Source: Chitinolyticbacter meiyuanensis (GTDB lineage Bacteria > Pseudomonadota > Gammaproteobacteria > Burkholderiales > Chitinibacteraceae). From it: 64,000 nt of DNA. The notes under the pieces are model-generated. The model saw nothing but the letters and a program-made list of their open reading frames with translations. It searched no databases and was not told the origin of the DNA. The stretch's first letter is position 1, and the number at the start of each line of letters is the position of its first letter. Location: positions 531,513-595,512 of the forward strand of contig NZ_CP041335.1 of assembly GCF_008033135.1 (NCBI RefSeq), written 5' to 3'. The position numbers and the translations under genes were made by a program. Positions 39,574 through 62,043 of the stretch are shown one piece after another.

Positions 39574-42135
39574 ATGCAAGGCAAGAATAAGTATGAAATG
39601 GGCCGGCAACGCTTGCTGGCATTGACGATGGCGGCTATCACCGCGATGCCGACGCCGCTGGTTGCAGTGGGTTTGGCGGCGATTGCGCCCGCAGCCCACG
39701 CGGCAGCGACCACCGGCTATACGCAGCTTGCGGGCGGCAAGGTCCAGTTTTATGTGAATGGTGCTGCATGGGTGGATATCCACTACACCGTTGCTGGTGG
39801 CGGCCAGCTGAATGTGCGCATGACCAATAGCGGCACCAACAACACCTATACCGTGAGCGGTATCCCCACGAACGCCGTAGTCACTTATTCCTTCACGATA
39901 GGCGCCAGCGACGGTTCCGCTATCGATACCGCAAAGTCCAGCTTTACCTATACCGGTGCCGTCACGACGCCGACACCGGCGCCAACGCCTGTACCCACAC
40001 CAGCCCCGACCCCGGCCCCAACGCCCGCTCCTACGCCATCAGCGTCTTATGGGGCAACGCAGCTCAGTGGTGGTGTCGTCGCGTTCTATGCCAATGGTGG
40101 GGCATGGGCGGATATTCACTACACGGTGAATGGCGGCGGACAGATCAATGTGCGCATGGTCAATAGCGGCACCAACAATGCGTACCAGATCACTGGCGTG
40201 CCGGCCAACGCCAGCATCGTCTATTGGTACACCATCGGTCAGGCCAACGGCTCCGCCATAGATACCCCGAAACAGACCCTCACCTACACCGGATCTGCCA
40301 CAACGCCGACGCCAACCCGGGCGCCGACTCCAGCCCCTACACCCGTTCCGACACCCGGCCCTACACCTGTGCCGACGCCTGTACCAACCCCGGCTCCTAC
40401 ACCAACGCCCGTACCGACATCACCCACTTCCGACACGCCAAACTTTGGCCCCAATGTGCAGATTTTTGACACCAGCACGCCGATCGGAACCATCCAGACT
40501 GCATTGAACAACGCGTTCAACCCGCAGCTGAATAACCCCAATGCACAGTTTGGCCCGCAACGTTATGCCTTCATGTTCAAGCCGGGCACCTATCGCGGCG
40601 TCTATGCCAACCTCGGCTTTTATATGTCGGTGATGGGTCTAGGCAAGCATCCTGACGATGTGACCCTGACCGGCAACGTGAATGTCGACAGTGGCTGGAA
40701 CTACGGCGACATCTCCAATGCCACGCAGAATTTCTGGCGGTCGGCAGAAAACATGGCCATCGTTCCGGACGGCGGTACGAATCGTTGGGCCGTCTCGCAA
40801 GCGGCGCCAATGCGGCGTATCCACGTCATGGGTAACCTGCACCTCGGGCCTTCCAACCAGGGCGATGGCCAGGGCTATGCCAGTGGCGGATATCTTGCGG
40901 ACAGCAAAGTGGATGGCAGCATCAGCTCGGGTTCGCAACAACAGTGGTACACCCGCGACAGCAATATTGGCCGTTGGTATGACGGCGTGTGGAATATGGT
41001 GTTCTCAGGCGTAGCCGGCGCACCTGCACAATCGTTCCCCGCGGTTTATGGCACCGCCAGTCCGTACACGACGCTGGCCACGACGCCGGTATCCCGCGAA
41101 AAGCCGTATCTGTATTTCGACACGGCGTCGGGCAAATACCTGGTGTTCGTACCGGCATTGCGCACCAACGCGTCCGGCGCAAGTTGGGCGAATGGTTCAA
41201 CGGCGGGTACAGCCATTCCGATGAGCAAGTTCTACGTTGCGAAGCCCACGGACACATCGGCCACCATCAACGCGGCACTGGCGCAAGGCCTGAACCTGTT
41301 CTTTACGCCAGGTACGTATCAGTTGTCGGCGCCGATTCATATCACCCGGGCAGACACCGTGGTGCTGGGTATTGGTTTCCCGACCCTGGTGCCCACCAAC
41401 GGTGTGACCGCCATGCAAGTGGATGACGTCAACGGCGTACGCATTGCGGGCCTGTTGTTTGATGCCGGCACGGTGAACAGCGCATCGTTGCTGACCGTGG
41501 GCCCGGCCGGATCATCGGCAAACCATGCGGCTAATCCGACCACGATTCAGGACGTGTACTTCCGTATCGGTGGTGCTGTGGCAGGGAAGGCCACCAACAG
41601 CCTGACGGTGAACAGCAACGACGTGATCCTTGATCATATCTGGGCATGGCGTGCCGATCATGGCATCTCGCCGACCGGGTGGACCGTGAACCCGGGAGAG
41701 ACGGGCGTGATCGTGAACGGGAATAACGTGTTGGCGACCGGCCTGTTTGTCGAGCATTACCAGAAGCACAACGTCGTGTGGAACGGTCAGGGCGGCAAGA
41801 CCATCTTCTTCCAGAACGAACTGCCTTATGACGTACCCAACCAGGCCTCCTGGATGAGCACACCCACCACCAATGGTTACGCCGCCTATTACGTGGCCAG
41901 CCACGTAACTTCACACACGGGTTACGGCATGGGTAGCTACTGCTACTTCAACGTGAACCCTGACGTGAATGCATACCACGGCTTTGAAGTGCCCAATGTG
42001 GCCGGTGTGTCGCTGCACGACGTATTTACGGTGTCGCTGGGTGGCGTGGGTACCATCACGCATGTGGTCAACAACGTAGGCGGTATGGCGCAGGGCGTTT
42101 CGACCCAACCGCAGAACGTGCTGAACTACCCCTGA
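39574..42135 (+). CDS. Secreted protein with two CBM56-like domains and a beta-helix, possible beta-glucanase
   Basis: An 853-residue exported protein. Signal peptide to about residue 44 (AIAPAAHA cut). Two closely similar domains at residues 49-128 and 161-240 (WVDIHYTVAGGGQLNVRM and WADIHYTVNGGGQINVRM) look like CBM56, a beta-1,3-glucan-binding family. Pro-Thr linkers follow each domain (129-160, 241-288). From residue 290 a repetitive beta-helix domain (FKPGTYRGVYANLGFY, SQAAPMRRIHVMG, GSQQQWYTRDSNIG, FFTPGTYQLSAPI, NGYAAYYVASHV) resembles proteins annotated in actinobacteria as 'adenylyl cyclase' or 'coagulation factor 5/8' proteins, probably misnamed carbohydrate-active enzymes. Activity and substrate unproven. 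A GGAGAG site precedes the ATG. Confidence 0.8.
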   Translation: MQGKNKYEMGRQRLLALTMAAITAMPTPLVAVGLAAIAPAAHAAATTGYTQLAGGKVQFYVNGAAWVDIHYTVAGGGQLNVRMTNSGTNNTYTVSGIPTNAVVTYSFTIGASDGSAIDTAKSSFTYTGAVTTPTPAPTPVPTPAPTPAPTPAPTPSASYGATQLSGGVVAFYANGGAWADIHYTVNGGGQINVRMVNSGTNNAYQITGVPANASIVYWYTIGQANGSAIDTPKQTLTYTGSATTPTPTRAPTPAPTPVPTPGPTPVPTPVPTPAPTPTPVPTSPTSDTPNFGPNVQIFDTSTPIGTIQTALNNAFNPQLNNPNAQFGPQRYAFMFKPGTYRGVYANLGFYMSVMGLGKHPDDVTLTGNVNVDSGWNYGDISNATQNFWRSAENMAIVPDGGTNRWAVSQAAPMRRIHVMGNLHLGPSNQGDGQGYASGGYLADSKVDGSISSGSQQQWYTRDSNIGRWYDGVWNMVFSGVAGAPAQSFPAVYGTASPYTTLATTPVSREKPYLYFDTASGKYLVFVPALRTNASGASWANGSTAGTAIPMSKFYVAKPTDTSATINAALAQGLNLFFTPGTYQLSAPIHITRADTVVLGIGFPTLVPTNGVTAMQVDDVNGVRIAGLLFDAGTVNSASLLTVGPAGSSANHAANPTTIQDVYFRIGGAVAGKATNSLTVNSNDVILDHIWAWRADHGISPTGWTVNPGETGVIVNGNNVLATGLFVEHYQKHNVVWNGQGGKTIFFQNELPYDVPNQASWMSTPTTNGYAAYYVASHVTSHTGYGMGSYCYFNVNPDVNAYHGFEVPNVAGVSLHDVFTVSLGGVGTITHVVNNVGGMAQGVSTQPQNVLNYP

Positions 42136-56684: not shown

Positions 56685-56975
56685 GTGGCATCGCTCGCGT
56701 GATCGATTGATGGTGCGATGCCGTCACCGCTTTGGCAAGCCGCTTGCCACCCGTCACCCCTGACCGGCAGCCGGTTGGGTACGCGCCACGGCGCGGATGC
56801 CGTTCGCACCGCGAAAGCGTCTGGCCGTCGTCGCTGCGTTGCGCGCATGGGCCGTCAATTGCAAGCTGCGCGCCAGAGGCCAGACCATGGCCCGGCCCGC
56901 TCGCCCACGGGATGCTTGGAGTCGAGACGCGAGTGCAGTCATCCAACTGCATGCAGTCTTGAGGAGTAAACACGC

Positions 56976-58997
56976 ATGAACCATCCCGTGCACTGGCTGG
57001 CGCGTTCGCGCCTGGCTGTCGCGCTGGCGAGCCTGGGCCTGTCTGCCATCGCGCTGGGCGCATCGCCCGCCTGCTTCTACGAACACATCAACTACACCGG
57101 GGCGAGCTTCTGCGTCGGCGAAGGCACGGCCAACGTCGATCTGCGCAGCTGGAACGACCGCATCTCCTCTGTAAAGCTGGAGTCGGGCTATCAGGTACAG
57201 CTGTTCGAGCACATCAACCAGGCTGACCGCGCACTGGCGTTGAGCACGAGCGAGGCCAATCTGGTCAACCGCCGCTTCAACGATGCCGCCTCGTCGTACC
57301 GCGTGGTGAAGGTGGCCGGCCCGACGCCGCAGCCGACGCCACGCCCCACCGCAACGCCCACGCCGCGGCCAACCCCGACATTGGCGCCAACGCCCCGGCC
57401 TACTTCGTTGCCGACGGCCACGCCGACCCCGCGTCCAACCCCGGTGCCGACGCTTGCCCCGACACCGACTCCGCGGCCCACGCCCATCCCGACGCCAACG
57501 CCACGCCCCACCGCCGTGCCGACGCCGGTACCGGGCGGCCTCGTTGCCGCGCTGCCGAACAGCGCGCAGTTCGATCCAGCGTGCAATCCGACGGTGGTGA
57601 TCGATCTGCAGGATCCGGTGGGCTTTGCCGCCTTCACCAGCAAGGCCACGCTCGATCAGTTGCGCCAGGCCATCGCCCAGTTCGCACGCAACGATTGTGC
57701 AGTGCTGTTCAAGTCGCCGACCGAGGTGGAGAACCAGCCGGCCACGCTGCGTGTGGTGATCAAGGCCATGGACGGCGTCGCCTACGCCGGTGGCAACGAG
57801 ATCACGCTGTCGAGTAGCTATATCGCCGGCCATTCGGATCCGGTGAAGGAAACGCTGGGCGTGTTCGCCCACGAAGTCACCCACATCTACCAGAACAACG
57901 ACCGCGATGCGGCCGAAGCGGAAGGCCGTGGCGCCATCATCGAAGGCATCGCCGACTTCGTGCGCTATCGCAACGGCTACAAGACGCTGGCCAATCGCCG
58001 CCCCGGCGGCAGCTGGAAGGATGCCTACGACACCACCGCCTTCTTCCTCGACTGGCTGGACCAGCGCTATCCCGGCTTTGTCTACCGGTTGAACCAGGCG
58101 CTGAGCTCGCGTGATCGCAAGCAGTGGACCTCCGCCTTCTTTGCTAGCGACACCGGCAAGTCGGTCGACACGCTGTGGGCGGAATACCAGCAGGCGCTGA
58201 ACCCGGCCCTGCCGACCACCGGCGCGGTGTGCTTCTACGAGCACATCAACTACGCGGGCAAGGTGTTCTGCAGCAACGAAGGCGCGACCGAAGTGCTGAG
58301 CGGTGGCTGGGACAACGGCGCCTCGTCGGTGAAGGTGCAGGCCGGCTACCAGGTCGAGCTCTATGACGGCACCAGCTACACCGGCAGCCGGCTGGCGCTG
58401 ACCGCCGACGAGCCCAATCTGGTCGGCCGCGGCTTCAACGACGCGATGTCCTCCTTCCGCGTCGCCAAGACCGGCAGCGGTGGCGTCACGCCAACGCCCA
58501 CACCGCTGCCCGGCGGCGTGCTGACCGGCGATACTCCGGCGGCGCAAGGCCTGTTGGCCGCGCATAACACGGTGCGCGCCGGGGAGAACGCTGGCCTGCC
58601 CGCAATGCGCTGGGACAACGCGCTCGCCGCCAGTGCCCAAGGCTGGGCCGACGAGCTTGCCGCCACCAACAACTGCGATCTCAAGCACAGCGGCCACAGC
58701 TTCCAGGGCCAGTGGATGGGCGAAAACCTGTTTGGCGGCTGGGGCTCCAACCCCACGCCGGACTATCGCTGGAGCCCGGCCCAGGTGGTCGATTCCTGGG
58801 CGAGCGAGAAGCCCAACTACAGCTTCGCCACCAAGAGCTGCGCCGCCGGCAAGGTGTGCGGCCACTACACGCAGGTGGTGTGGAAGAACTCCACCCAGCT
58901 CGGTTGCGGCCGCGCCCGCTGCGGCGGCAATACCAAGGAAGTGTGGGTGTGCAACTACTTCCCCGGTGGCAACTACGTGGGACAGAACCCGTATTGA
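56976..58997 (+). CDS. Secreted crystallin / basic secretory protease / crystallin / CAP protein
   Basis: A 673-residue exported protein of four domains. Signal peptide to residue 32. Domain 1 (33-112) and domain 3 (419-495) are beta/gamma-crystallin-like (CFYEHINYTGASFC; CFYEHINYAGKVFC). A Pro-Thr linker (115-186) precedes domain 2 (188-407), a basic secretory protein/peptidase of plants and bacteria (PF04450 type) with zinc motif H299-E-V-T-H303 and a downstream GIADFVRYRNGY. Domain 4 (about 520-673) is a CAP/PR-1 domain (LLAAHNTVRAGENAGLPAMR; MGENLFGGW; CGHYTQVVWKNSTQLGCG). Even Cys pairs suggest disulfides. Role unknown; an extracellular hydrolase or antagonism factor is plausible. Confidence 0.85.
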   Translation: MNHPVHWLARSRLAVALASLGLSAIALGASPACFYEHINYTGASFCVGEGTANVDLRSWNDRISSVKLESGYQVQLFEHINQADRALALSTSEANLVNRRFNDAASSYRVVKVAGPTPQPTPRPTATPTPRPTPTLAPTPRPTSLPTATPTPRPTPVPTLAPTPTPRPTPIPTPTPRPTAVPTPVPGGLVAALPNSAQFDPACNPTVVIDLQDPVGFAAFTSKATLDQLRQAIAQFARNDCAVLFKSPTEVENQPATLRVVIKAMDGVAYAGGNEITLSSSYIAGHSDPVKETLGVFAHEVTHIYQNNDRDAAEAEGRGAIIEGIADFVRYRNGYKTLANRRPGGSWKDAYDTTAFFLDWLDQRYPGFVYRLNQALSSRDRKQWTSAFFASDTGKSVDTLWAEYQQALNPALPTTGAVCFYEHINYAGKVFCSNEGATEVLSGGWDNGASSVKVQAGYQVELYDGTSYTGSRLALTADEPNLVGRGFNDAMSSFRVAKTGSGGVTPTPTPLPGGVLTGDTPAAQGLLAAHNTVRAGENAGLPAMRWDNALAASAQGWADELAATNNCDLKHSGHSFQGQWMGENLFGGWGSNPTPDYRWSPAQVVDSWASEKPNYSFATKSCAAGKVCGHYTQVVWKNSTQLGCGRARCGGNTKEVWVCNYFPGGNYVGQNPY

Positions 58998-59075
58998 TCC
59001 TGAACCTGCCGGTTCGGGGCCGTGCCCATGTGGCATGGCGCCGGCCGGGGCGACTTTCCTTCTCCTCCTGATTGC

Positions 59076-60906: not shown

Positions 60907-62043
60907 TCAGCGCAAGGGGCCGAGATAGCGCGCGGTCATCCCGTCGAGCAGGAACAGGTGCTTGTTGCGCAGATCGGCGAAATCGCCCTGATTGAGCACG
61001 ATGTCGATCTGGCTGTCGGTCCAGCGGGTGGGCACCTGGACCACGGCGCGGCTGCGCTCGGCCCAGACCGCCGAGTCGGCGAGCTCGATACGGCGATGGC
61101 TGAAATCGAGGTAGGGCATGGCGTGGCCGATGAACTCGCCGGCTTCGCCGTTCATGTCGACGGTGTTGGACAGCAGGAAGTAGTTGAGCCGCCCGCTGGT
61201 GCCCAGCCAGCCGCTGATCTCACCGTGGTAGTTGCGCGATACATCGCGCAGCAACTGGCCGTCGGCGTAGAAGGCGATGCGGTCATTGGCGAAATCGGCC
61301 AGGATCTCGTAACGCATCCAGCGGTTGTTGCTGTAGCCGGCGGGTGGGTCGGCGTAGAGGCCGGGCATGCCGTCGTTACTACCCTCGGCGCGGGCGGTCA
61401 GCGTGCTGCCTTCCTTGGCCACCCAGACGTTGTGGTTGATCACGTTGGAGTTGGTCCAGTAAAAGCGCATGAACTTGCCCGGCGCGGCGATGGTGGAGAG
61501 GTTCACGTAGCACGACACATAAAGCTGCGGGTAGTCACCGTTGCGCTCCCACAGGTTCCAGTTGCGCAACCGGTAGTTGGCTGGATAGGCATCGCGGATG
61601 GACTGGGTGATCTGGCGGCGCAGCCAGCGCCCGGAATGGGTGACGCCGCCACTCAGCTGCACCGTGGCGCCGGAGGCCGTGGCCTGGCTGTTGAAATCGG
61701 TCGAGGTCAGGATAGGGTAGATGCCGTCGAGCTGCGCCTGCCAGCCGGCCTTGGTGTTGCTGGCGGGTGCGCCACCCACGGCGTTGTCGAAATCACTGAA
61801 TCGAGCCAGCAGGTGGCGCTGGCCGAAATAGCGATGATTGTCGGTGTTGTAATCGGCTTTGCTGCCAAACCCGCTTCCCTGAATCACATAGCGCGCACCG
61901 TGGCTGGTGGCAGGGACAACCGCTGGCGTGGGGCTGGGTGACGATGCCGCGGCCGACTGGGGGGCTGCATCGTCGCTGCCCTCACCTCCGCCACAAGCGG
62001 CAAGCAGCACGGTGAACAAGACCGGGAGGGCGCGGCGGGTCAT
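60907..62043 (-). CDS. Lipoprotein of unknown function embedded in the mod cluster
   Basis: A 378-residue predicted lipoprotein: lipobox LLAAC at residues 13-17, followed by a low-complexity Ser/Ala/Pro region. The rest (YVIQGSGFGSKADYNTDNHR; WLRRQITQSIRDAYPANYRL; RFYWTNSNVINHNVWVAKEG; RWMRYEILADFANDRIAFYA) reads as a beta-rich, jelly-roll-like fold of the polysaccharide lyase/lectin kind, with many aromatics. No catalytic motif is recognisable. It lies between modA and modB on the same strand; nothing links it to molybdate. ATG at 62043. Confidence 0.7.
   Translation of the reverse strand: MTRRALPVLFTVLLAACGGGEGSDDAAPQSAAASSPSPTPAVVPATSHGARYVIQGSGFGSKADYNTDNHRYFGQRHLLARFSDFDNAVGGAPASNTKAGWQAQLDGIYPILTSTDFNSQATASGATVQLSGGVTHSGRWLRRQITQSIRDAYPANYRLRNWNLWERNGDYPQLYVSCYVNLSTIAAPGKFMRFYWTNSNVINHNVWVAKEGSTLTARAEGSNDGMPGLYADPPAGYSNNRWMRYEILADFANDRIAFYADGQLLRDVSRNYHGEISGWLGTSGRLNYFLLSNTVDMNGEAGEFIGHAMPYLDFSHRRIELADSAVWAERSRAVVQVPTRWTDSQIDIVLNQGDFADLRNKHLFLLDGMTARYLGPLR

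What the first reader, a model, noticed from the sequence alone, without database searches (positions are those of the whole stretch)
56976..58997. Crystallin-BSP-crystallin-CAP secreted protein
One exported polypeptide joins two beta/gamma-crystallin-like modules, a basic secretory protein protease with an intact HEVTH, and a C-terminal CAP domain. BSP proteins and CAP proteins are both known among plant pathogenesis-related proteins (PR-17 and PR-1), so finding them fused in a bacterium is striking. The crystallin modules may bind calcium or a target surface, the CAP domain may bind sterols or lipids, and the BSP may cut proteins.
Basis: partly seen in the sequence, partly recalled or inferred. 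Interest (0 to 1): 0.75.

Follow-up and report, generated by a model that had tools for sequence, protein, structure and literature searches.

The report
Secreted crystallin-protease-crystallin-CAP protein
A chitin-digesting soil bacterium makes one exported protein that joins a plant-PR-17-like metalloprotease, a plant-PR-1-like CAP domain and two calcium-type crystallin modules; it looks like a rare variant of this family's kit for taking apart fungal or chitinous material, and none of its activities has been tested.

Summary
Window 56976-58997 (+) encodes a 673-aa protein: signal peptide, crystallin, P/T linker, BSP (138 bits), crystallin, CAP (89 bits). The HEVTH motif, a conserved downstream Glu, four of four crystallin calcium motifs and the CAP His/Glu tetrad are intact, and every domain is under purifying selection. 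The genome is a Chitinolyticbacter, most likely C. meiyuanensis. The exact architecture was found in 3 of 43 genomes of its GTDB family (two genera) and in none of the other Pseudomonadota genomes sampled for BSP. Its parts are common there. Related BSPs carry a chitin-binding module plus a crystallin; one with that domain order was detected in a published secretome and rose on chitin. The same crystallin module rides on GH114, GH16, GH76 and M66 enzymes. In three unrelated lineages, free BSPs sit beside GH92 alpha-mannosidases. I read it as a secreted zinc protease that helps strip (glyco)protein from fungal or chitinous matter, held there by the crystallins; the role of the CAP domain is open. 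The link to plant defence is family membership only: the CAPE1-like C-terminus occurs in 16 of 17 PR-1-like bacterial CAPs examined. No activity has been demonstrated; structure prediction failed for want of relatives.

The parts
56976..57062 (+). N-terminal signal peptide (residues 1-29, cleavage inferred after ALGA)
   Evidence: read from sequence: basic start, hydrophobic core, ALGA-SP; no predictor run
57063..57311 (+). beta/gamma-crystallin module 1 (res 30-112), clamps NDRISS and NDAASS
   Evidence: Pfam PF03995/PF08964/PF00030 over cut-off; motifs
57312..57536 (+). P/T-rich linker (res 113-187)
   Evidence: composition
57546..58199 (+). BSP (PF04450) putative zinc metalloprotease (res 191-408), HEVTH 299-303, E323 in EGIAD
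   Evidence: Pfam 138 bits; BSP alignment
58209..58475 (+). beta/gamma-crystallin module 2 (res 412-500), clamps DNGASS and NDAMSS
   Evidence: Pfam PF03995/PF00030 over cut-off; motifs
58476..58526 (+). short T/P linker (res 501-517)
   Evidence: sequence
58527..58994 (+). PR-1-like CAP domain (res 518-673), tetrad H571 E583 E611 H630, six Cys, ends CNYFPGGNYVGQNPY
   Evidence: Pfam 89.4 bits; aligned to tomato P14a, E=2.6e-27

Best explanation
The protein is exported to the medium and folds as disulfide-stabilised modules on flexible linkers. The BSP domain acts as a zinc metalloprotease on structural or mannosylated proteins of fungal walls or other chitinous matter, exposing polysaccharide to the bacterium's chitinases and glucanases. 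The two crystallin modules bind calcium and most likely hold the enzyme on the substrate, standing where sister proteins carry a CBM5/12. The CAP domain adds a second, still unknown binding function, possibly for lipid or sterol at fungal membranes. Shown here: gene, domains, intact motifs, selection, family distribution and module associations. Inferred: proteolysis, substrate, calcium binding, carbohydrate binding and CAP ligand.
For: Domains and intact catalytic motifs. Even cysteine count in every domain, 2-2-2-6, consistent with an extracellular protein. Sister BSPs in the family are CBM5/12-crystallin-BSP and CBM5/12-crystallin-Fn3-BSP; a protein with the latter domain set, Andreprevotia ripae IGB42_03011, is secreted and increases on chitin (PMC8802321). 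The same crystallin module is joined to GH114, GH16, GH76 plus ricin-type plus CBM5/12, M66, and CBM5/12 plus a weakly matched M12B-like metalloprotease. The GH16 enzyme lies directly downstream in C. albus. Stand-alone BSPs lie beside GH92 alpha-mannosidases in Bacteroides, Pseudoalteromonas and a third lineage. For the plant BSP PRp27, an intact HExxH is needed for labelling by a hydroxamate metalloprotease probe (PMC9322406). The species is a chitin degrader (PMC7641034).
Against: No expression, activity or binding data for this protein. No solved BSP structure was found by sequence and the structure prediction failed. PRp27 restricts bacterial growth even with its zinc motif mutated (PMC9322406), so a BSP may act without catalysis. 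It has no CBM5/12 itself. The A. ripae authors found no association of IGB42_03011 homologues with chitinolytic bacteria. The genomic context is not conserved between genera.
Confidence: 0.55

Rival explanations
1. Antifungal weapon: the protein attacks living fungi or oomycetes, the CAP domain extracting sterols and the BSP cutting wall mannoproteins, a bacterial parallel to plant PR-1 and PR-17.
For: CAP domain is close to tomato P14a with all tetrad residues and the aromatic pair Y615/F617 aligned; PR1 inhibits oomycetes by sterol binding (PMC10189770); crystallin-linked enzymes belong to families that target fungal polymers.
Against: No test of lipid binding; the caveolin-binding motif is only partly matched (third position is Cys, as in P14a); the species is known for growth on chitin and shrimp shell; no antagonism data found.
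Confidence: 0.17
2. The crystallin modules are I36-type inhibitor domains that hold the adjacent BSP protease latent until released.
For: Both modules score best in Pfam PF03995, Inhibitor_I36 (35.8 and 52.4 bits) and flank the protease.
Against: Profile search of solved structures gives calcium-binding microbial crystallins such as Protein S and Clostrillin and no I36 inhibitor among the 60 best; all four calcium motifs intact; the same modules ride on glycosidases.
Confidence: 0.07
3. The C-terminus mimics the plant CAPE1 peptide and is released to manipulate plant immunity.
For: It ends CNYFPGGNYVGQNPY, matching CNYx-PxGNxxxxxPY (PMC12485366).
Against: 16 of 17 distinct PR-1-like bacterial CAPs collected, from several unrelated families, end the same way; C. 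albus has CSYF; no plant association of the genus came up.
Confidence: 0.03
4. The BSP domain is non-catalytic and the protein is a multivalent adhesin or wall-binding protein.
For: PRp27 function in immunity does not need the zinc motif (PMC9322406).
Against: HExxH and the downstream Glu are conserved across all eight BSPs aligned.
Confidence: 0.13

Closest known systems
CBM5/12-crystallin-Fn3-BSP protein IGB42_03011 of Andreprevotia ripae (PMC8802321)
   Same: secreted modular BSP with crystallin module from the same bacterial group, increased on chitin
   Different: has CBM5/12 and Fn3, no CAP, one crystallin; here two crystallins and a CAP replace them
Plant PR-17 / PRp27 basic secretory proteins (PF04450)
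   Same: BSP domain with HExxH
   Different: plant PRp27 is a small (about 23 kDa) single-domain apoplastic protein; this one is multi-domain, bacterial and its BSP domain is acidic (pI 5.2)
Plant PR-1 / tomato P14a (CAP superfamily)
   Same: CAP domain, tetrad, six Cys, C-terminal PxGNxxxxxPY
   Different: fused C-terminal domain of a larger protein; the C-terminal motif is shared with other bacterial CAP proteins
Microbial calcium-binding beta/gamma-crystallins (Protein S, Clostrillin, vibrillin)
   Same: two N/D-N/D-X-X-S/T-S clamps per domain
   Different: here an accessory module on enzymes

Membership tests
BSP family (PF04450) | score above curated cut-off | tested here: met
   138 bits against 23.8
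BSP family (PF04450) | HExxH and downstream conserved Glu | tested here: met
   H299, E300, H303, E323; invariant in eight BSPs
BSP family (PF04450) | metalloprotease activity | not testable with these tools
   needs assay; PRp27 not classified in MEROPS per PMC9322406
Plant PR-17 (basic secretory proteins in the narrow sense) | basic protein | tested here: not met
   BSP domain pI 5.2; so it is a PF04450 member but not filed as PR-17
CAP superfamily (PF00188) | score above cut-off and His/Glu tetrad | tested here: met
   89.4 against 21.1 bits; tetrad aligned with P14a
CAP superfamily (PF00188) | sterol or lipid binding | not testable with these tools
   needs binding assay
Calcium-binding beta/gamma-crystallins | two N/D-N/D-X-X-S/T-S motifs per domain | tested here: met
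   4 of 4
Calcium-binding beta/gamma-crystallins | calcium binding | not testable with these tools
   needs ITC
I36 peptidase inhibitors | Pfam score above cut-off | tested here: met
   35.8 and 52.4 bits against 21.1
I36 peptidase inhibitors | closest solved relatives are I36 inhibitors | tested here: not met
   best hits are calcium-binding crystallins

The most novel reading that the evidence does not exclude
A bacterium has joined counterparts of two plant defence proteins, a PR-17-like protease and a PR-1-like CAP, on calcium-dependent crystallin anchors, to attack living fungi at both wall glycoprotein and membrane sterol.
Probability: 0.15. Interest if true: 0.7.

Novelty: new variant of a known kind. 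Interest (0 to 1): 0.42.

Why it matters
BSP proteins are induced in plant defence, but the studied plant member PRp27 is not assigned to a protease family in MEROPS (PMC9322406) and I found no known substrate. The bacterial fusions and their neighbours (crystallin modules on fungal-wall enzymes, GH92 mannosidases beside BSPs) point to wall (glyco)proteins as a testable substrate, and the fused CAP domain offers a secreted bacterial case for testing what CAP domains bind. The protein could also be useful for deproteinising chitin waste.

Tried and rejected
Structure prediction of the whole protein: mean pLDDT 34.7 with only two near-identical sequences usable, so the model means nothing and no fold search was run. 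CAPE1 mimicry: the motif proved generic in bacterial CAPs. Inhibitor reading of the crystallins: disfavoured. Searching Bacteroidota genomes for the same architecture: a plasmid locus cannot serve as a centre, so other phyla remain unsurveyed. Papers combining BSP with GH92 or with CAP domains: none relevant found. A large antisense ORF (56754-59036, minus) was set aside because codon statistics and conservation support the plus strand.

Full report
Observation. The ORF 56976-58997 (+) encodes 673 aa with an ATG and a well-placed AGGAG. Pfam finds BSP (138 bits), CAP (89.4 bits) and two crystallin-type modules that score in PF03995 and PF00030, the first also in PF08964. GC3 is 0.86. Against the C. 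albus orthologue dN is 0.00-0.07 and dS 0.25-0.70 in every segment; a homologue from another genus (62% identity) keeps the same order of domains. The four calcium-clamp motifs are beyond chance (0.07 expected in shuffles). Cysteines come in even numbers in each domain, 2, 2, 2 and 6.

Organism. The closest named match is Chitinolyticbacter albus (94%). The window's own genome has 4,325,960 bases in one contig, which fits the 4.33 Mb reported for C. meiyuanensis SYBC-H1 (PMC7641034); the species assignment is an inference.

Distribution. In the GTDB family, 5 of 43 genomes have a BSP and 17 of 43 a CAP. Only three have both in one protein: G000, G001 and G024. In samples of 399 genomes from the order and 398 from the phylum, which overlap in part with each other and with the family set, no BSP above cut-off outside the family lay in a frame long enough for this architecture: the longest was 352 aa. 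Other phyla were not surveyed.

Relatives inside the family. G022 has CBM5/12, crystallin, BSP; G015 and a second G024 gene have CBM5/12, crystallin, Fn3, BSP (Pfam was run on the G015 protein, in which the crystallin module is read from its NDxxSS-type motifs, below Pfam threshold; the G024 gene is assigned by its close similarity). This is the domain set of A. ripae IGB42_03011, found in the secretome and increased on chitin (PMC8802321). G015 resembles A. ripae in size and contig number but was not proven to be it.

What the crystallin module travels with. In this genome and its relatives the module is joined to GH114 (in two genera), GH16, GH76 with a ricin-type lectin and CBM5/12, M66, and to CBM5/12 with a weakly matched M12B-like metallopeptidase. 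GH114 enzymes are endo-alpha-1,4-galactosaminidases (PMC12054363 abstract); fungal galactosaminogalactan as their substrate, and GH16 and GH76 activity on beta-glucan and alpha-mannan, are general knowledge. In C. albus the GH16-crystallin enzyme is directly downstream of the BSP-CAP gene; in the window's genome its parts match separate loci. Profile search puts the modules with calcium-binding microbial crystallins and not with I36 inhibitors.

What BSPs travel with elsewhere. Bacteroides finegoldii has GH92-GH92-BSP-GH92-GH97, Pseudoalteromonas xiamenensis GH92-BSP, and a third gammaproteobacterial genus GH92-BSP. This suggests mannosylated glycoprotein as a substrate; it is an association seen in a handful of loci, not a counted statistic, and a Vibrio BSP has no such neighbour.

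CAP domain. It matches tomato P14a (E = 2.6e-27) with tetrad residues and the C-terminus aligned. The ending C[NS]YxPxGNxxxxxPY occurs in 16 of 17 distinct PR-1-like bacterial CAPs collected, so it is a feature of this CAP type and not evidence of plant mimicry.

Mechanism. A secreted zinc protease for wall or cuticle protein, anchored by calcium-type crystallins, with a CAP domain of unknown ligand, is the reading that uses most of the evidence. Protease activity, anchoring and CAP function are inferred. The plant precedent gives a caution: PRp27 needs its zinc motif for probe labelling but not for its effect on bacteria (PMC9322406).

Novelty. All domains are known and the domain-shuffling style is typical of the family. 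The fusion of BSP and CAP with two crystallins was not found described. It is a new variant of a known kind.

Noticed in passing
window 39574-42135 (+): 853-aa secreted protein with two CBM56 modules and P/T linkers in a region of lower GC (0.57-0.59); the C-terminal half has no Pfam match and may be an unassigned glucanase-like enzyme.
   Followed up: partly
window 60907-62043 (-): 378-aa lipoprotein-like protein (LLAACGGG) with no Pfam match.
   Followed up: partly
L120, L074, L069, L071: BSP genes adjacent to GH92 alpha-mannosidases in three lineages, a possible BSP substrate clue.
   Followed up: partly
L073:5137-11783: Pseudoalteromonas sp. NC201 megaplasmid has two F5/8C-PKD-BSP proteins flanking a TonB-dependent receptor.
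   Followed up: no
L077:906-1529 (-), G000:C1:1413405: A second PR-1-like CAP in the same genome, a lipoprotein ending PAGNYVGQNPY.
   Followed up: no
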